Of a DNA stretch of 6,516 nucleotides, positions 305 to 6,516 are shown piece after piece; positions within the stretch are counted from its first letter, which is position 1, and every line of letters starts with the position of its first letter. The notes under the pieces are model-generated. The model was not told the origin of the DNA, made no database searches, and saw only the letters and a list, made by a program, of their open reading frames with translations. Location: the NCBI GenBank assembly GCA_024636105.1, contig JAGXHO010000191.1:1-6516 (forward strand). The letters run 5' to 3'. The DNA comes from Trueperaceae bacterium. Lineage in GTDB: Bacteria > Deinococcota > Deinococci > Deinococcales > Trueperaceae. Both the position numbers and the translations under genes were made by a program.

Positions 305-1312
305 ATGGACGTACCGATCACCGTCCGCCCCGAGGCGACGACGCCGATCTACCTGCAGATCAAGTACCAGCTCGCTCACCTGATCACCAGCGGCCGACTG
401 CTGGAGGGCGAGCGCCTGCCGACCGTTCGGACGGTGGCGGAACGGCTCGACGTCAATCCAGGCACGGTCGCCCAGGCTTACCGCGAGCTGCAGCAGCAGG
501 GGCTTCTCGAGGCCGCGCCGGGGCGGGGCACGTTCGTTGCGCCCACCGCGCCCGTCGAGACCGATGCCGGTGAGCGCCGGAGGCTCCTCGAGGACGCCGT
601 GCGCGCCGCGCTGTACCGAGCCCGAGGGCTCGGCTTCGCCGACGACGAGGTCCGGCAGCACCTCGATCTCGCTCTCGCCTCCGACGACGCGCGCCCGGTG
701 CTGTTCGCGGCGCCGACGCTCGACATCGCCCGGAAGTACGCCACCTCCCTCGAACGACGCATCGGACCGGCGCTCGCCGTGCACCCGGTGACGTTCCACG
801 CGATCGAGGCGCAGCAGCCGCACGTCGCCGCGCTGCTGAGCACCGCGTACTACGTCGTCACCTTCACCGGCCTCGCCCGCTCCGTCGGCGAAGCGCTCGA
901 ACGCCTCGGTCGTCCCCACCGCGTGATCGGATGCGCCACCGAGGTGCAGCCGCACACGTATGCGGCGCTGCGCGCGCTCGATCCGGCCGCACGCTTGTGC
1001 CTCGCGACGCAGGAGCCGTACCTGCCGCCGACGCTGAACTTGCTCACGGAACACACGGGTCGCCCCGCCGAGGACGTCGAGGTCGTGCTCGACGACGATC
1101 GGGAGCGCGCGGCGGCCGCCTTCGCGCGGGCCGACCGGGTCGTGTACACCTTCGGGGCGCGCGACCTGGTGACCGCCCTCGGCGTCCCCGCGGAACGACG
1201 CCTGGAGGTTACGTTCGACCTCACGGCCGACGCCGTGGCCCGCGTCGCCAGGGTCGCGTTCGGATCCGAGGAGCGGGGCGACCAGCTTGACCCGCGCCGC
1301 GACGGCTCGTAG
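305..1312 (+). CDS. GntR-family transcriptional regulator with an unusual large C-terminal domain
   Basis: A 335-residue DNA-binding regulator. Residues about 13-78 form a GntR winged helix-turn-helix: 'PIYLQIKYQLAHLI', then 'GERLPTVRTVAERLDVNPGTV' with the recognition helix near 50-62, then the wing 'GLLEAAPGRGTFV'. A short helical piece follows (about 91-120, 'RARGLGFADDEV'), like that of YtrA/YhcF-type members. The remaining roughly 200 residues alternate beta strands and helices (for example 'PVLFAAP', 'YYVVTFTG', 'RLCLATQEP', 'VEVVLDD'). They fit none of the standard partners: UTRA gives about 240 aa in total, FCD about 230, and the MocR aminotransferase type about 450. The C-terminus may be a two-lobed periplasmic-binding-like sensor, by inference only. 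The ATG at 305 is backed by GAGGAG 5 nt upstream. Its stop codon overlaps the -10 of the next promoter. It is the only regulator in view and the best candidate for the TTGTAC operators. Confidence 0.9.
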   Translation: MDVPITVRPEATTPIYLQIKYQLAHLITSGRLLEGERLPTVRTVAERLDVNPGTVAQAYRELQQQGLLEAAPGRGTFVAPTAPVETDAGERRRLLEDAVRAALYRARGLGFADDEVRQHLDLALASDDARPVLFAAPTLDIARKYATSLERRIGPALAVHPVTFHAIEAQQPHVAALLSTAYYVVTFTGLARSVGEALERLGRPHRVIGCATEVQPHTYAALRALDPAARLCLATQEPYLPPTLNLLTEHTGRPAEDVEVVLDDDRERAAAAFARADRVVYTFGARDLVTALGVPAERRLEVTFDLTADAVARVARVAFGSEERGDQLDPRRDGS

Positions 1313-1315
1313 AGT
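1287..1315 (+). promoter_or_regulatory. Promoter A, for the dehydrogenase-dipeptidase-ispF operon
   Basis: A TTGACC -35 (1287-1292), 17-nt spacer and TAGAGT -10 (1310-1315), matching the sigma-70 type consensus at 5/6 and 4/6. The -35 lies inside the end of the GntR coding region, and the -10 starts on its TAG stop codon. Expected transcription start is near 1321-1323, giving a leader of about 90 nt. Confidence comes from the same layout recurring at two other promoters in this window, each followed after 5 nt by TTGTAC. Confidence 0.65.
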
Positions 1316-1320
1316 CTGTC

Positions 1321-1341
1321 TTGTACGGATAAGGCGGTACA
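1321..1341. promoter_or_regulatory. Operator A: TTGTAC-N10-GTACA inverted repeat
   Basis: TTGTAC (1321-1326) and GTACA (1337-1341) form an inverted repeat with a 10-nt spacer (GGATAAGGCG). It begins 5 nt after the promoter A -10, so it covers about +1 to +20 of the transcript, a classic repressor position. The outer arms and spacing equal those of operators B and C, but the central GTAC seen in those two is absent here. Confidence 0.65.
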
Positions 1342-1410
1342 TTCCCGAGGCACCCGCTTCGGAACGCCACCGAACCGCTCGCGCGGCCACGGCCGCCCAC
1401 GGAGGTCCGC

Positions 1411-2376
1411 TTGCCCCCGTCCGCGACCGTCCTGTTGGCCCATGCCGTGGGCGACGACCACCGCACCCGCTTGCGCGACGAGTTCGCCACCGTGCGCTTC
1501 GTCCGACTCGAGGACGGCGGCGGCGTGCCGACCGAGGGGCGCTCGGCGACGGGGCTTCTGCGCGTGGCGCTCAGCAAGCCGCAGCTGTCGCGTGCCCTCG
1601 CGGAGGCGACCGACGTTCGCTGGGTCCACACGAGCACCGCCGGGTTCGACTGGGCGCTCGTGCCCGAGATCGCAGCGCGCGGGATCGTCCTCACCCGATC
1701 GGCCGCGTCGTACGCGATCCCGATCGGCGAGTTCGTGCTGGCGCTGGTCGCGGCGCACGCCAAGCGCCTCGCGACGCTCGCCGAGGCGCAACACGCCCAC
1801 CGCTGGGCGAGCGTCGAACCGCTCGAGCTCGCGGACCTGACCGTCGGGGTGGTGGGGGCCGGCGGCATCGGTCGCGAGGTCGCGTGGCGTTGCCGGGCGC
1901 TCGGGATGCGCGTGGTGGCCACGCAGCGGACGCCTCGCGCTCAGCCGGAGTTCGACGAGGTGTGGCCGGCCAGCGAGCTTCGGACCCTGCTCGCCGCGTC
2001 CGACGTCGTCGTCGTGGCGTGCCCGCTGACGCCGGAGACGCGCGGCCTCATCGACGGCCCCGCGCTCGCCGCGATGCGCCCGGACGCCTACCTGATCAAC
2101 GTCGCCCGCGGGCCGATCCTCGACACCGGAGCCCTCCTCGAAGCGCTGCGCGCCGGCCGCTTGGCCGGGGTCGCGCTCGACGCCTTCGACGAGGAGCCGC
2201 TGGCCTCCGACCACCCGCTCTGGGACGCACCGGGCGTGACGGTGACGCCCCACACCTCCTTCAAGTCGGCGCGCAACCTCGACCGCGTGCTCGCGGAGTT
2301 CGAAGCGAACCTCCGCCGGTTCCTCGCCGGCGAGCCTCTCCATCACGCCCTCCGCGACCCCAACCTCGGCTACTGA
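1411..2376 (+). CDS. D-2-hydroxyacid dehydrogenase (NAD(P)-dependent)
   Basis: A 321-residue cytosolic oxidoreductase interconverting a 2-oxo acid and a D-2-hydroxy acid. The catalytic domain is split around a Rossmann domain that starts near residue 142. The dinucleotide loop GAGGIG is at 149-154. The catalytic triad is complete: Arg233 in 'VARGPILD', Glu262 in 'DEEP' and His281 in 'TPHTS'. After the second Rossmann strand, where an Asp would mark NAD use, the sequence is 'TQRTPR' with Arg173 and Arg176, which suggests NADP preference as in glyoxylate/hydroxypyruvate reductases. The start is TTG at 1411 with GGAGG 5 nt upstream; length is normal for the family. It is the first gene of an operon behind promoter/operator A and is followed 43 nt later by the M19 gene. 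The actual substrate (glyoxylate, hydroxypyruvate or another 2-oxo acid) is not decided by the sequence. Confidence 0.92.
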   Translation: MPPSATVLLAHAVGDDHRTRLRDEFATVRFVRLEDGGGVPTEGRSATGLLRVALSKPQLSRALAEATDVRWVHTSTAGFDWALVPEIAARGIVLTRSAASYAIPIGEFVLALVAAHAKRLATLAEAQHAHRWASVEPLELADLTVGVVGAGGIGREVAWRCRALGMRVVATQRTPRAQPEFDEVWPASELRTLLAASDVVVVACPLTPETRGLIDGPALAAMRPDAYLINVARGPILDTGALLEALRAGRLAGVALDAFDEEPLASDHPLWDAPGVTVTPHTSFKSARNLDRVLAEFEANLRRFLAGEPLHHALRDPNLGY

Positions 2377-2419
2377 CCCCCGACCGGGCGCCCCGCTGCG
2401 CCCCAAGAGAGGAACGACC

Positions 2420-3502
2420 GTGACCACGCCCCTGACCGGCTCCCCCCTCCCGCACGATCCCCTTCACGAGCGCCCCAACCGCGGCTTCCACCCGGTCCTG
2501 ACCGAACCGCAACCGCATGTATTCGTCGATGGCTGCATGCAGATCTGGCCGGATGCCGATCTCGCGAACGCGCACCTGCACGGCTGCGACGTGTACGCCG
2601 TCACGGCGTTGCGCCCGCACCACGGCGTCGCCGACGCGCTCAACGACCTCATGGGCTGGCACAAGGTCGTCCGCGAGCACCCGAACCTCACCCTCGCGCT
2701 GACGGTGGCGGGTGTGCTGGAGGCGAAGCGGGACGGGCGCGCCACGCTGCTGCTCGCCGCCCAGGACGGCGAGTTCCTCGGCGACGACCCGAGCCGTGTC
2801 GAGGCCTTCCAGCGCCTCGGCCTGCGGATGCTGATCCCGGCCTACAACCGCGACAACCTGTTGTGCGGCGGCGTGCTCGAGCACACGAACGCCGGTCTTT
2901 CGGGCCTCGGCCGCGAAGTGGTCGCCGAGTGCGATCGCATGGGCGTCGTCCTCGACGCTTCGCACGTCAGCAAGCGCGCGAGCCTCGAGATGATCGAAGC
3001 GTCCGCGAACCCGGTCGTGTTCAGCCACGCGAACCCCAAGGCGCTGGTCGACAACGCCCGCAACGTCGACGACGAGCAGATCAAGGCGATGGCGGCCGGT
3101 GGTGGCGTGATCGGCGTCGTGAACTGGCGGCCGCTGCTGTTCAAGGCCGGGATGACGGCGCGACCGACCGTCCAGGACTTCCTCGACCACATCGACTACC
3201 TCGCCGACCTGCTGGGAACGACCGCGAACATCGGCATCGGCACCGATTTCAGCCTCGGCTCGTACCCGCGCCACACCCACGACCAACACGGACCGCACTA
3301 CAAGACCGTGATGACCGAGATGAACAAGTACGTCACCCCCTACTGGCGCGCCCCCGAGCGCTTCGCCGAAGGCTTCACCTGGTACCCGGAGATCGTCGAC
3401 GTCGCGCGGCTCCTCCACGAGCGCGGGTACGCGGAGGAGGACGTGGCCGGGATCGTCGGCGCGAACTTCTTGCGGGTGTTCGAGCAAGTCTGGGGCGCCT
3501 GA
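2420..3502 (+). CDS. Peptidase M19 (membrane/renal dipeptidase) family protein, altered metal site
   Basis: A 360-residue TIM-barrel amidohydrolase relative. M19 features are clear: '[10 protein letters not shown]', '[10 protein letters not shown]' with His182, '[12 protein letters not shown]' with His203, '[21 protein letters not shown]' with Arg214, and 'IGIGTDF' with Asp276. However, the N-terminal metal pair HxD is replaced by 'DGCMQ' (Cys39/Gln41), and the bridging Glu of the usual 'EG' motif is Gln115 in 'AQDGEF'. One metal site may therefore be lost. From memory, a bacterial M19 subgroup with Gln in place of the bridging Glu exists, so this need not be a dead enzyme. No signal peptide or membrane segment is visible, so it should be cytosolic. 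The GTG start at 2420 has GAGGA 6 nt upstream. It sits between the dehydrogenase and ispF and fits processing of a dipeptide or other amide substrate; dipeptidase activity is inferred, not shown. Confidence 0.88.
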
Positions 3503-3540
3503 GCGTCCCCGGCCGCACGGCGCCGTGGGATGATGGGCGC

Positions 3541-4014
3541 GTGGACGACACGCGGATCGGGTACGGCGAGGACGCCCACCGGTTGGCCGCAGGACGACCG
3601 CTCGTGCTCGGCGGGGTGCGGATCCCGGAGGCGGAGCGAGGCGCGCTGGCGCACTCGGATGGCGACGCCCTACTGCACGCGATCGCCGATGCGCTCTTGG
3701 CGGCTTGGGCGCTCGGCGACATCGGCCACCACTTCCCGGACACCGACCCGGCGCACGCCGGCGTCGACTCCCGCGCCATCGTCGCGCGGATCCGGGAGGT
3801 CGTCGCTAGCCACGCGCCGAACGCCCGGCTCACGCAGGTCTCGGCCGTCGTCACGCTCGACCGCCCCAAACTCGGGCCCCATCGCGCGGCGTTGGTGGCG
3901 GCGGTCGCGGCGCTGCTCGACCTCGCACCCGACCGCGTCGGCCTGACCTTCAAGACCAGCGAAGGGCTCGCGCCGGACCACGTCCAGGCGCGAGCCGTCG
4001 CTCTCTGGCGGTGA
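3541..4014 (+). CDS. ispF: 2-C-methyl-D-erythritol 2,4-cyclodiphosphate synthase
   Basis: A 157-residue enzyme of the non-mevalonate isoprenoid pathway. It converts 4-diphosphocytidyl-2-C-methylerythritol 2-phosphate into the cyclodiphosphate with release of CMP, and normally works as a cytosolic trimer with active sites at subunit interfaces. Metal ligands are visible as Asp11 and His13 ('GYGEDAHRL') and His46 ('[12 protein letters not shown]'); 'AHSDGDA' (38-43) and '[12 protein letters not shown]' (59-70) are family signatures. The C-terminal '[15 protein letters not shown]' replaces the common TTTE-LGF-GR and matches my memory of Thermus/Deinococcus IspF, as does '[10 protein letters not shown]'. 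Length is normal. The start is GTG at 3541; the ribosome site is weak (GGGATGATGG just upstream), but homology begins within a few residues. It follows the M19 gene by 38 nt with no promoter I can see, so it is probably read from upstream. A neighbouring ispD is not present in the window. Confidence 0.95.
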
Positions 4015-4021
4015 GGGCCCC

Positions 4022-4056
4022 GTTCGGGCGGCGCGGTCGCGCCCCGCCGCCCGAAC
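4022..4056. terminator. GC-rich stem between convergent genes, putative bidirectional terminator
   Basis: GTTCGGGCGGCG (4022-4033) pairs perfectly with CGCCGCCCGAAC (4045-4056) across an 11-nt loop; a nested GGCGCG-GT-CGCGCC alternative (4030-4043) is also possible. It starts 7 nt after the ispF stop and ends 4 nt before the stop of the convergent TPR gene, so it can serve both strands. Neither side carries a clear U-tract, so efficiency as an intrinsic terminator is uncertain. Confidence 0.65.
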
Positions 4057-4060
4057 CGCC

Positions 4061-4882
4061 TCAGCCCAGACGTTCCAGATCGATCTCGGCCGCGATGAAC
4101 CCGAAGGCGTGCTTGAACCCGGTGTCGACGATGCGCCGGAGCAACGCCTTCGCCTCGTCGGTGCGCCCCGAGTAGAGGTACCAGTTCGCCACGCCGTAGC
4201 CGCGCGTTGCCAGCGCCAGTGGGCCGACCCCGCTAGCCTCGAGGACCGCCTCCGGGGCGACCTCGCCGCGGTACATCCGCACGCGCACGTCGTACGAGCC
4301 CTCGACGACGTGGAGCGCCTTCGGGATCGTGGCCAGCAGCTCGGCCGCCTCGGCGGCGCGGCCGGCGCGTTGGAGGCTCATGTAGAGCCAGTCCCAGGTG
4401 GCGACGCGCATGTCGTCGTCGACGCAGAACGGCAGCGTGGCGCGGTAGGCGTCCACCGCACGATCGAACTCGCCGCGCAGGTAGTAGCCGAGCGCCAGGT
4501 GGTAGCCGATGCACGACTTGAGCGTGCCCTTGTAGGTGTCGTGGTAGCGCTCGAGCGTCTCCGGCGTGATCGGCATCGGTGCCGGGAGCAGCCGGTCGAC
4601 GTGCCCGAGGATCAGGTTCGCGAGGTCGAGCTCGACCTCCTTCTGGTAGAACTCGAGCTCGTCGGGCATGGCCGCGGCAAGCTCTGCGGCACGCTCGAGG
4701 TCGGCCATCGCCTCGTCGAGGCGGCGCACGGTGATGTAGCGGTGGCCCCGGTGGCGGAGCAGGTAGACGTCGTCCGGATGGTGCCGGAGCCCCTCGGTCA
4801 TGACGTCGATCGCCTCGTCGGGCTTCCCGAGGTAGTTCTTCAGGCGTCCGAGGAGGACGTAGCGGTTGGCGGCAGGCACCAT
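4061..4882 (-). CDS. Tetratricopeptide repeat (TPR) protein
   Basis: A 273-residue, soluble, all-helical repeat protein with no signal peptide or membrane segment. TPR-like helix pairs are recognisable: residues about 5-38 ('LLGRLKNYLGKPDEAIDVMTEGLRH'), about 39-72 ('RHRGHRYITVRRLDEAMADL'), then later repeats around 'GYHLALGYYLRGEFDRAVDAY', 'LYMSLQRAGRAAEAAELL' and 'GVANWYLYSGRTDEAKALL'. A less regular linker containing 'PMPITPETLERYHDTY' separates the early and late repeats. Such arrays mediate protein-protein contacts; no catalytic motif is seen, so the partner and role are unknown. I chose ATG at 4882 because GGAAAGGA lies just upstream on the minus strand; a GTG at 4909 would add nine residues but falls inside a hairpin. 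It lies 121 nt downstream of the tautomerase-like gene on the same strand and is probably cotranscribed with it. Confidence 0.85.
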   Translation of the reverse strand: MVPAANRYVLLGRLKNYLGKPDEAIDVMTEGLRHHPDDVYLLRHRGHRYITVRRLDEAMADLERAAELAAAMPDELEFYQKEVELDLANLILGHVDRLLPAPMPITPETLERYHDTYKGTLKSCIGYHLALGYYLRGEFDRAVDAYRATLPFCVDDDMRVATWDWLYMSLQRAGRAAEAAELLATIPKALHVVEGSYDVRVRMYRGEVAPEAVLEASGVGPLALATRGYGVANWYLYSGRTDEAKALLRRIVDTGFKHAFGFIAAEIDLERLG

Positions 4883-4894
4883 GGCGGTCCTTTC

Positions 4895-4944
4895 CGATCG
4901 CGACGCCACCGCACCATCGGTGCCGTGGCGTCGGCGAGCGATCG
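4895..4944 (-). repeat. Strong hairpin just upstream of the TPR ribosome site
   Basis: CGACGCCAC (4901-4909) pairs with GTGGCGTCG (4925-4933). Inside, GCACC (4911-4915) pairs with GGTGC (4919-4923) around a 3-nt loop, with a single C-C opposition (4910/4924). CGATCG (4895-4900 and 4939-4944) can extend the base past a 5-nt bulge. In the minus-strand transcript the stem ends directly before GGAAAGGA and the TPR start codon, so it could act as an mRNA stability or translation-control element. There is no U-tract. Confidence 0.55.
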
Positions 4945-4948
4945 TGGC

Positions 4949-4982
4949 GGCGCCCCCGCCGAGTTCTCGCGGCCGGGGCGCC
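4949..4982 (-). terminator. Hairpin after the tautomerase-like gene, possible terminator or attenuator
   Basis: GGCGCCCC (4949-4956) pairs with GGGGCGCC (4975-4982), and GCCG (4958-4961) with CGGC (4970-4973), with one mismatch and an 8-nt loop. It begins 21 nt past the tautomerase stop codon in the minus-strand transcript. No U-tract follows, so it may be a partial terminator that sets the ratio of the two genes or a 3'-end stabiliser. Confidence 0.5.
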
Positions 4983-5003
4983 AGGAACGAGGGTCGGCGA
5001 GCT

Positions 5004-5213
5004 TCAGTGCGGGAGCGTGATCCCCTGCTCCTCCGCGCGCTTCGCGAAGGTCTTGCCGCCTTTGCCCCAGACGTCCATCCCGAGTTCGTACAGGATGACC
5101 TGAGTGCCTTCGGACTGGGCGCCGTTGGCGACCATCACTTCGGTGATGCCCTTGATGATGGCGTCGCGCTGCTCCTGGGAACGGCGACCGAGTTCGACGC
5201 GGACGATGGCCAT
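5004..5213 (-). CDS. 4-oxalocrotonate tautomerase-family protein lacking Pro1
   Basis: A 69-residue protein of the 4-oxalocrotonate tautomerase (4-OT) type, normally a small beta-alpha-beta subunit forming hexamers whose N-terminal proline is the catalytic base. Family traits are the amphipathic first strand 'IVRVEL', an Arg-Ser-x-Glu-Gln turn (Arg10 where 4-OT has Arg11), the helix 'AIIKGITEVMV', the strand 'TQVILYEL' and 'WGKGG' (Trp48 at the Phe50 position). Two differences stand out: the start reads Met-Ala-Ile-Val, so after Met removal residue 1 is Ala rather than Pro, and Gln37 occupies the Arg39 position. ATG at 5213 is firmly set by AGGAGG 7 nt upstream; upstream in-frame sequence is the promoter region. 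It heads a minus-strand unit with the TPR gene behind promoter/operator B. Fold assignment is confident; tautomerase activity is doubtful. Confidence 0.88.
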   Translation of the reverse strand: MAIVRVELGRRSQEQRDAIIKGITEVMVANGAQSEGTQVILYELGMDVWGKGGKTFAKRAEEQGITLPH

Positions 5214-5258
5214 GGACGTGCCTCCTGGATGTGGGGTCGGCGAGGATGCGCCGCCGCT

Positions 5259-5279
5259 CGTACGGGTACGTTGGTACAA
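5259..5279. promoter_or_regulatory. Operator B: TTGTAC-N10-GTACG at the tautomerase promoter
   Basis: Read on the minus strand, TTGTAC (5279-5274), a 10-nt spacer and GTACG (5263-5259), beginning 5 nt after the promoter B -10. One arm has G instead of the final A. A third GTAC (5267-5270) lies between the arms. On the plus strand it shares the 14-mer GGTACGTTGGTACA (5265-5278) with operator C, 130 bp away. Confidence 0.65.
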
Positions 5280-5284
5280 GCTCG

Positions 5285-5314
5285 ACGGTAGCGCCAGCGG
5301 CGCACCTCGGTCAA
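5285..5314 (-). promoter_or_regulatory. Promoter B, for the tautomerase-like/TPR unit
   Basis: On the minus strand, TTGACC -35 (5314-5309), 18-nt spacer and TACCGT -10 (5290-5285), matching consensus at 5/6 and 3/6. Weak alone, but the -35 word, near-equal spacing and the exact 5-nt distance from -10 to TTGTAC repeat those of promoters A and C. Predicted start is near 5278, about 65 nt before the start codon. Confidence 0.55.
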
Positions 5315-5353
5315 GTCCGTTGCTCATCAACAATCAACCCACGCAGCGGGCGC

Positions 5354-5382
5354 TTGACGACGCTTCGCGCGCGGCATAGCAT
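5354..5382 (+). promoter_or_regulatory. Promoter C, for the substrate-binding protein gene
   Basis: TTGACG -35 (5354-5359), 17-nt spacer and TAGCAT -10 (5377-5382), matching consensus at 5/6 and 4/6. The predicted start is near 5389, giving a leader of about 120 nt before the ATG at 5510. It is divergent from promoter B; the -35 boxes of the two promoters are 39 nt apart. Beyond these elements and a ribosome site I see nothing coding in the 296-nt gap between 5213 and 5510. Confidence 0.65.
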
Positions 5383-5387
5383 CCCCC

Positions 5388-5408
5388 TTGTACTGGTACG
5401 TTGGTACA
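5388..5408. promoter_or_regulatory. Operator C: TTGTAC-N10-GTACA inverted repeat
   Basis: TTGTAC (5388-5393) and GTACA (5404-5408) with a 10-nt spacer that contains an additional GTAC (5396-5399). It starts 5 nt after the promoter C -10, so it covers about +1 to +20. The 14-mer at 5395-5408 is identical to that at operator B. Confidence 0.7.
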
Positions 5409-5509
5409 GCAGCGTCGTGCGCGGCGCCCCGCAGAACTCCGGAGCACGTACCTTCTCGCGCGTCCCCGCCGGCTCCGGCCGCAACCGACGCACCCACGGA
5501 GGCCCACCG

Positions 5510-6516
5510 ATGCCCGACCGCACCCGCACCGCGCCATGGACCACGCTCCTGGCGGCCCTGACGCTCGCCGTGGCGTCGATCGCGCCAGCCGCGCTCGCCC
5601 AGGAGACGCCGCAATACGGCGGGGTCATCCGGGTCCCGCTCGCGACCCAACCGGGCAACTTCAACCCGCTGCTCCCGAGCGAGCTCGCGTCGACCATCGT
5701 CTACTGGACGATGTTCAGCCCGCTCACGGTCGTCAGCCCGCACACCAACCAGCTCGAACCGCTCCTCGCCGAGCGCTGGGAAGCGAACGCCGACGTCACC
5801 TCGTGGACCTTCCACCTGCGCCAGGACGTCCTTTGGCACGACGGCGAGCCCGTCACCGCCGACGACGTCAAGTTCACCTTCGACCGGATCATGGACCCGG
5901 CCGAGGGCTCGCAGGCGATCACCGGCTTCGCGCGCGTCACCGACGTGGTCGTCGTCGACGAGTACACCGTCCGCATCGACATGTCGGCGCCCGACGTCTT
6001 CTTCCCGGACCGCCTGGCGCTCGGCGGCTACGAGATCATCCCCGAGCACGTGCTCAGCGGCTACGCGCTGCTCGCCGACGCGGTCGACTTCAACACCCTC
6101 ACGCCGATCGGCAACGGCCCGTTCAAGATGCAGCAGGCCGTCCCCGGCCAGTACTTCGAACTGGTCGCGAACGAGGACTACTTCAAGGGTCGCCCGTACC
6201 TCGACGGCATCACCTTCCGGGTCGTCCCCGACGCCAACACGCGCGTGACCGAGCTCCTCGCCGGCCAGCTCGACTGGGTCGACGTGCTGCCCAGCCAGCT
6301 CCCGGCGGTCAACGCGAACCCGAACGTCCAGGTCAACACCTTCGACAGCCTCGGCTACCAGATCTTCGCCTGGAACCTCCTCGACGAGCGCTTCCAGGAC
6401 CTGCGCGTGCGCGAAGCGATGATGTACGCCATCGACCGACGCGCCGCCGCCGCCGCGGTGTCGCCCGGCCTCGGCTACGTCGACGACGTCTTCATCCCGC
6501 TCGGCATCACCTGGAT
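5510..6516 (+). CDS. ABC transporter substrate-binding protein, family 5 (peptide/nickel type), N-terminal part
   Basis: The first 335 residues of an exported solute-binding protein; the gene runs off the right edge and family members are usually 500-600 residues. A Sec signal peptide is clear: basic residues at 4 and 6, a hydrophobic core at about 13-25, and cleavage likely after Ala-Leu-Ala (residue 30). There is no lipobox Cys, so the protein should be free in the periplasm. Mature-chain family 5 signatures follow: 'YGGVIRVPL' (36-44), 'NFNPLL' (50-55), 'LEPLLAERWE' (82-91), 'WTFHLRQDVLWHDGEPVTADDVKFTFDRI' in pieces over 99-127, and 'GNGPF' further on. Such proteins deliver oligopeptides, dipeptides, nickel or glycosides to an ABC permease, whose genes probably lie beyond the window. 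ATG at 5510 has ACGGAGG ending 7 nt upstream. Control by promoter/operator C links it to the catabolic-looking genes on the left. Substrate is unknown. Confidence 0.93.
   Translation, partial: MPDRTRTAPWTTLLAALTLAVASIAPAALAQETPQYGGVIRVPLATQPGNFNPLLPSELASTIVYWTMFSPLTVVSPHTNQLEPLLAERWEANADVTSWTFHLRQDVLWHDGEPVTADDVKFTFDRIMDPAEGSQAITGFARVTDVVVVDEYTVRIDMSAPDVFFPDRLALGGYEIIPEHVLSGYALLADAVDFNTLTPIGNGPFKMQQAVPGQYFELVANEDYFKGRPYLDGITFRVVPDANTRVTELLAGQLDWVDVLPSQLPAVNANPNVQVNTFDSLGYQIFAWNLLDERFQDLRVREAMMYAIDRRAAAAAVSPGLGYVDDVFIPLGITW

What the first reader, a model, noticed from the sequence alone, without database searches (positions are those of the whole stretch)
1287..5408. Three transcription units share an identical promoter-operator layout: a small local regulon
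At 1287-1341 (+), 5314-5259 (-) and 5354-5408 (+) the order is TTGAC(C/G), 17/18/17 nt, TANNNT, exactly 5 nt, TTGTAC-N10-GTAC(A/G). The inverted repeat would cover the first 20 transcribed bases at each promoter. Exact preservation of the 5-nt offset on both strands is hard to get by chance and predicts one repressor coordinating the dehydrogenase-M19-ispF operon, the tautomerase-TPR pair and the binding-protein gene.
Basis: partly seen in the sequence, partly recalled or inferred. Interest (0 to 1): 0.75.

Follow-up and report, generated by a model that had tools for sequence, protein, structure and literature searches.

The report
GntR repressor's three-promoter transport regulon
Three neighbouring promoters in this bacterial DNA carry the same docking site right where transcription should start, and related bacteria keep that layout, so one GntR-type switch very probably controls a small set of uptake and breakdown genes; this is a well-supported but fairly ordinary kind of gene control.

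Summary
The window has exactly three TTGAC-N17/18-TANNNT promoters and three GTAC-N10-GTAC repeats, and they coincide one-to-one with the same 5-nt gap (none of 1000 shuffles holds one complete unit). Comparison supports the interpretation. The closest named relatives are Trueperaceae. Tautomerase and binding-protein genes stand back to back in 11 loci, window included. Of their 22 promoters, 20 carry promoter plus GTAC operator; the other two carry one-base variants. In 326,516 fetched bases the composite pattern hits 20 times, always at these systems' promoters. The tautomerase, searched independently, occurs in 8 of 39 genomes, the same eight that hold strong GntR relatives. Limits: the exact gap is not fixed in relatives, genome-wide pattern counts barely exceed or equal controls, ispF co-regulation is untested, and binding by this GntR is inferred. 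The regulator looks like a YtrA-type head plus an extra two-lobed domain without a Pfam match in the window protein. Likely mechanism: a GntR dimer covers about +1 to +20 and represses until a ligand releases it. New variant of a known kind.

The parts
305..1312 (+). GntR-family regulator, 335 aa: winged helix (16-78), two YtrA-like helices (85-124), then a two-lobed alpha/beta domain (about 130-320)
   Evidence: Pfam PF00392 E 1.9e-16; PDB profile match to small GntR proteins over residues 5-117 and 12-124; models with mean pLDDT 91.2 and 94.5
1287..1315 (+). promoter of the dehydrogenase operon, TTGACC-17-TAGAGT, overlapping the 3' end of the GntR gene
1321..1342 (+). operator 1, TTGTACGGATAAGGCGGTACAT (outer GTACs only)
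   Evidence: a site TTGTACTCGTACATCGGTACAT lies upstream of the dehydrogenase gene in G001 (L132)
1411..2376 (+). D-2-hydroxyacid dehydrogenase family gene
   Evidence: PF02826 E 1.1e-55
2420..3502 (+). M19 dipeptidase-family gene, canonical metal-binding motif absent
   Evidence: PF01244 E 1.1e-69; motif comparison
3541..4014 (+). ispF, 38 nt behind the M19 gene; membership of the regulon uncertain
   Evidence: TIGR00151 above cut-off
4061..4882 (-). TPR protein, downstream of the tautomerase
   Evidence: TPR models; a TPR homologue follows tautomerase and GntR in 8 of the 10 other divergon loci
5004..5213 (-). 4-oxalocrotonate-tautomerase family protein, Ala instead of Pro after Met
   Evidence: PF01361 E 1.7e-7
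5258..5279 (-). operator 2, TTGTACCAACGTACCCGTACGA, tautomerase promoter
   Evidence: matching position conserved
5285..5314 (-). promoter of tautomerase-TPR unit, TTGACC-18-TACCGT
5354..5382 (+). promoter of the binding-protein gene, TTGACG-17-TAGCAT
5388..5409 (+). operator 3, TTGTACTGGTACGTTGGTACAG
   Evidence: matching position conserved
5510..6516 (+). family 5 extracellular solute-binding protein (cut by the window end)
   Evidence: PF00496 E 2.3e-70

Best explanation
The three sites are operators of one GntR-family repressor, most likely the one encoded at 305-1312. Shown: the promoter-operator layout, its conservation in relatives and its restriction to this gene set in the DNA examined. 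Inferred: a dimer of the regulator binds the GTAC boxes over about +1 to +20 and blocks RNA polymerase, so that transporter, tautomerase-TPR and dehydrogenase-M19 genes are off together; a small molecule related to the imported substrate binds the two-lobed C-terminal domain, loosens DNA binding and switches the set on. ispF may be carried along by read-through or have its own promoter.
For: Three complete units against none in 1000 shuffles. Both sides of 8 of 8 tautomerase/binding-protein divergons match the composite pattern, 16 hits against 0 in 2000 shuffles. Two loci fetched after the pattern was fixed match on both sides (L204, L205), and the third (L203) has one-base variants on both sides. 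All 20 composite hits in 326,516 bp are at promoters of these systems. In G002, which has at least 12 binding-protein paralogues, the pattern hits upstream of just two binding-protein genes, both beside a GntR of this family. The 8 of 39 genomes with the tautomerase are the 8 with GntR relatives at E below 1e-60. 14 of 14 regulators in site-bearing genomes (13 site-bearing loci plus L131) have N-x-(G or S)-T in the recognition helix, while the 2 from clusters without the sites have N-H-H-T. GntR operators have conserved GT and AC, far from the centre in YtrA types (PMC4494728, passages). A YtrA-type repressor site covering the transcription start is known (PMC6746942, passages).
Against: No binding or transcription data. 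The window's own genome is not held. The neighbourhoods were fetched around GntR relatives, so GntR proximity there is partly by selection; only look from the other side. Genome-wide pattern totals equal or only modestly exceed the reversed controls: 16 against 13, 22 against 21, 27 against 12. The window regulator's clade is only 28-38% identical to the divergon regulators. The window GntR gene shows no GTAC operator in its own upstream region. L131, which holds the closest regulator (69%), has no composite hit, and the G001 dehydrogenase site has no TTGAC promoter; G001 seems to lack close tautomerase-divergon and binding-protein orthologues, so the prediction could not be tested there.
Confidence: 0.82

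Rival explanations
1. The sites are real operators, but another GntR paralogue elsewhere in the genome is their main reader; the GntR beside the dehydrogenase has its own targets.
For: Relatives carry several paralogues (up to 6 matches per genome). In the 10 other divergon loci the neighbouring GntR belongs to a different clade from the window's, and in the 8 with a TPR homologue in reach it lies between tautomerase and TPR, a slot that is empty in the window.
Against: In G001 the window-type regulator is the only strong relative (next best E 1.4e-33), and a triple-GTAC site is present there. In G002 a window-type GntR gene directly precedes a perfect TTGTAC-N10-GTACAA site.
Confidence: 0.12
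2. The inverted repeats act as RNA hairpins at the 5' ends of the transcripts, not as DNA operators.
For: The repeat would lie in the first 20 transcribed bases; outer arms are complementary in the window sites.
Against: At 17 of 27 compiled sites at least one of the four stem pairs is broken, and only 4 have a changed but still pairing pair; relatives keep the GTAC boxes near the -10 rather than the stem.
Confidence: 0.03
3. Chance: GTAC-rich sequence beside weak promoters.
For: Genome-wide totals of the loose patterns equal or barely exceed reversed controls.
Against: 0 of 1000 and 0 of 2000 shuffles, and conservation in 11 divergons.
Confidence: 0.02
4. The regulator is an activator or dual regulator at these sites.
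For: MocR-type GntR proteins can activate (recalled).
Against: The sites lie downstream of the -10 at 20 of 21 promoters examined, a repressor position.
Confidence: 0.06

Closest known systems
YtrA subfamily of GntR regulators (B. subtilis YtrA; Sulfolobus YtrASa)
   Same: Winged helix and two following helices match small GntR proteins over residues 5-124, including 6sbs YtrASa over 5-74; long operator with GT and AC far from the centre, extra half-sites, site over the transcription start, ABC-transporter targets (PMC4494728 and PMC6746942, passages).
   Different: About 200 further residues forming a two-lobed domain; divergently arranged, multi-unit regulon, whereas YtrA regulons are mostly single operons.
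AraR subfamily (GntR head with LacI-like sensor; sensor type recalled, passages call AraR chimeric)
NanR (GGTATA)3 operator
   Same: Three near-regular boxes read by a GntR protein.
   Different: Boxes are self-complementary GTACs with 6- and 8-bp steps; NanR known here only from the abstract in a listing (PMC8012715).

Membership tests
GntR family | PF00392 winged-helix domain | tested here: met
   E 1.9e-16, 59.9 bits against cut-off 27
GntR family | operator with inverted GT...AC | tested here: met
   GTAC-N10-GTAC at three promoters; binding itself not shown
YtrA subfamily | short C-terminal region of about 50 aa with two helices | tested here: not met
   the two helices are there (85-124) but about 200 further residues follow
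YtrA subfamily | GT and AC far from the operator centre | tested here: met
   GT-N14-AC (feature from PMC4494728 passages)
HutC, FadR, MocR subfamilies | UTRA, FCD or aminotransferase C-terminal domain | tested here: not met
   only GntR, Fe_dep_repress (26.4 bits, cut-off 26, same helices) and a sub-threshold Rrf2 match at E up to 0.001; window C-terminal domain alone: 0 families at E up to 0.1
AraR subfamily | LacI-like effector domain | tested here: inconclusive
4-oxalocrotonate tautomerase family | N-terminal catalytic proline (recalled) | tested here: not met
   Ala follows Met in 5 of 5 sequences printed, though PF01361 matches
M19 dipeptidase | HxD metal motif (recalled) | tested here: not met
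   CxQ in 12 of 12 aligned cluster proteins, though PF01244 matches

The most novel reading that the evidence does not exclude
A Deinococcota-wide regulatory module: a GntR subfamily with a YtrA-like DNA-binding and dimerisation part fused to a small two-lobed sensor reads a three-box GTAC operator placed at +1. In the window's lineage the original regulator gene between tautomerase and TPR has been lost and a second clade of the same family, beside the dehydrogenase gene, has taken over the old operators, with emphasis shifting from GTACYRGTAC to GTAC-N10-GTAC. The controlled genes, a tautomerase without its catalytic proline and an M19 protein without the usual metal motif, would then serve an undescribed catabolic route.
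Probability: 0.3. Interest if true: 0.55.

Novelty: new variant of a known kind. Interest (0 to 1): 0.4.

Why it matters
It gives an operator code and a target set for a GntR family that has neither in the papers found here, in a phylum whose local regulators are little studied. Paralogous regulators with and without the GTAC operator in the same genomes (G021, G023) would let specificity changes in the recognition helix be tested directly, and the regulon ties an importer to two enzyme-like proteins that lack the expected catalytic residues.

Tried and rejected
RNA hairpin reading: disfavoured. Chance: rejected. Exact 5-nt gap as a family rule: rejected; distances from the -10 to the first GTAC at 20 of 21 promoters are 7 nt in 9, 6 in 5, 4 in 4, 3 in 1 and 1 in 1, and the 21st (G001 dehydrogenase) has no TTGAC promoter (some of the 21 were chosen because a site had been seen). 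Autoregulation through GTAC in the window: none seen upstream of the GntR gene; in the relatives GntR is often behind the tautomerase promoter, and in L138 it has its own site.

Clade-specific operator shift: TT before the first GTAC in 5 of 5 window-clade against 2 of 22 other sites, outer GTAC pair 5 of 5 against 4 of 22; but the window-clade sites were found with TTGTAC or GTAC-N10-GTAC patterns, so these tests are biased and serve only as a lead.

Full report
What is there. The window encodes, in order, the end of an aldehyde-dehydrogenase-like gene on the minus strand (weak NCBIfam matches), a GntR regulator, a D-2-hydroxyacid dehydrogenase, an M19 dipeptidase-family protein, IspF, and on the minus strand a TPR protein and a 4-oxalocrotonate-tautomerase-like protein, then on the plus strand a family 5 solute-binding protein cut by the window end. 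The three promoter-operator units lie where the finding says. In the whole window there are three TTGAC.-17/18-TA...T promoters and three GTAC-N10-GTAC repeats, and they are the same three places; 1000 dinucleotide shuffles never produce a complete unit.

Source. No genome is held for the window. The regulator has 49 relatives at 42-94% identity over most of its length in the protein collection, plus one shorter relative (P0039) and more distant head-only matches. Two named records hold the closest full-length relatives: Trueperaceae MAGs PLM2.Bin25 (L001, 69%) and CSSed165cm_63 (L002, 58%). Trueperaceae belong to the Deinococcota. The window is therefore probably from that family.

Conservation. 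In L002 the regulator is followed by TTGACA-18-TAGATT and a perfect TTGTACCAACGTCCTCGTACAA, then a binding protein and two permease genes. Searching 39 genomes of the family found regulator relatives in 21 at E up to 1e-15. In seven of these genomes the neighbourhood shows the tautomerase and binding-protein genes back to back, as in the window: L135, L136, L139, L140, L141, L142, L143, with permeases and usually dehydrogenase and M19 genes in the cluster. With the window that makes eight divergons, and in all eight both promoters match TTGAC.-N16-19-.A...T-N0-12-GTAC(NNGTAC or N10-RTAC): 16 hits against 0 in each of 2000 shuffles. The pattern was set after these regions had been printed. It was then applied unchanged to three later loci from outside that family but in the same phylum set: L204 and L205 match on both sides, L203 on neither, though it has a one-base variant on each side: GTATCAGTAC-N4-GTAC and GTACTGATAC (by eye). 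So 20 of 22 divergon promoters match strictly.

Specificity. Over the window, L002 and L131-L150 (22 sequences, 326,516 bp, both strands) there are 20 strict hits: the 16 divergon promoters, the window dehydrogenase promoter, the L002 binding-protein promoter, and the regulator and binding-protein promoters of L138. Whole-genome totals are less telling. TGTAC-N10-GTACA gives 16 places in 11 of 39 genomes against 13 for the reversed control, and 4 of the 16 are at these systems: the only ones in G001, G002, G021 and G024. TTGAC-N26-34-GTACNNGTAC gives 22 against 21 control, with 13 of the 22 at the divergons (one of the 13 is a second reading of the same operator). TTGAC-N26-34-GTAC-N10-RTAC gives 27 against 12 control, 13 at regulon promoters, 5 in another GTAC-rich promoter group. 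The location, not the total, is the evidence.

Regulator link. The neighbourhoods were chosen because they hold regulator relatives, so proximity there proves little. The independent view is the tautomerase: it occurs in 8 of 39 genomes at E up to 1e-10, 12 places. These are the eight genomes with regulator relatives at E below 1e-60, and 11 of the 12 places share a contig with one; the exception is G001:C9, where the dehydrogenase-M19-tautomerase-M19 cluster has the site TTGTACTCGTACATCGGTACAT upstream. Clusters L133 and L134 carry similar genes and a family regulator but no GTAC site; their regulators read N-H-H-T where the 14 regulators of site-bearing genomes compared read N-x-(G or S)-T (13 from site-bearing loci and L131, whose genome has the site on another contig). 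This is two sequences of one clade, so a lead only.

Operator. The 27 compiled sites read G-T-A-C at the first box in 26, an inner GTAC at positions 9-12 in 19 (2 of 5 window-clade and 17 of 22 others), and an outer (G or A)TAC. An RNA hairpin is disfavoured because 17 of 27 break a stem pair.

Mechanism. With a -10 ending five bases before TTGTAC, transcription should start at or next to the first base of the operator (inference from sigma-70 promoters). A dimer there would block open-complex formation or escape. YtrASa is an established repressor whose site covers the start (PMC6746942, passages), and GntR operators carry GT and AC far from the centre in YtrA types and extra half-sites in many groups (PMC4494728, passages). 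The regulated set suggests import and breakdown of a peptide-like or hydroxy-acid compound; substrate unknown.

Novelty. Searches for GntR/YtrA operators, Truepera with GntR, the gene combination, and YtrA with GTACTA listed no paper on this regulon; only listings were seen, except passages of PMC4494728 and PMC6746942, and most subscription papers are not held. Overall: a sound prediction of a local regulon, of a new GntR variant.

Noticed in passing
window 5004-5213 and L135, L140, L203, L205: The tautomerase-like protein starts Met-Ala in 5 of 5 sequences printed, so the catalytic proline of the family (recalled) is missing although the protein is 83-94% conserved in the family's seven divergons.
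   Followed up: partly
window 2420-3502 and eleven homologues: The M19-family proteins have CxQ instead of HxD and Gln instead of the metal-binding Glu in 12 of 12 aligned (canonical residues recalled); the nearest solved structure is the amidohydrolase 2i5g.
   Followed up: partly
L174 (G001:C225), L184 (G032:C34), L176 and L189 (G015), G018:C296: A separate group of promoters holds four to seven GTACs; the L174 one precedes a DUF6326 gene. Its regulator is unknown.
   Followed up: partly
L180 (G023:C11) and L181 (G024:C18): A conserved TTGACAACG...GTATGTTTGTACAACAGCACGTGTAC promoter region in two genomes, apparently unrelated to this regulon.
   Followed up: no
window about 231-246: Palindrome CATCATGTCATGATG between the aldehyde-dehydrogenase-like gene and the GntR gene; partly explained by start codons on the minus strand.
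   Followed up: no
L133 about 9217-9228 and the matching region of L134: The paralogous clusters have TAGTCTACTA at the position of the -10, a candidate for a different GntR operator.
   Followed up: no
L131 12168-13124: A 3' piece of a dehydrogenase gene abuts a TPR gene lacking its start, on opposite strands; either a rearrangement or an assembly join.
   Followed up: no
window 4910-5003: In 8 of the 10 other divergon loci a GntR gene lies between tautomerase and TPR; in the window this slot is empty and the regulator sits beside the dehydrogenase.
   Followed up: partly
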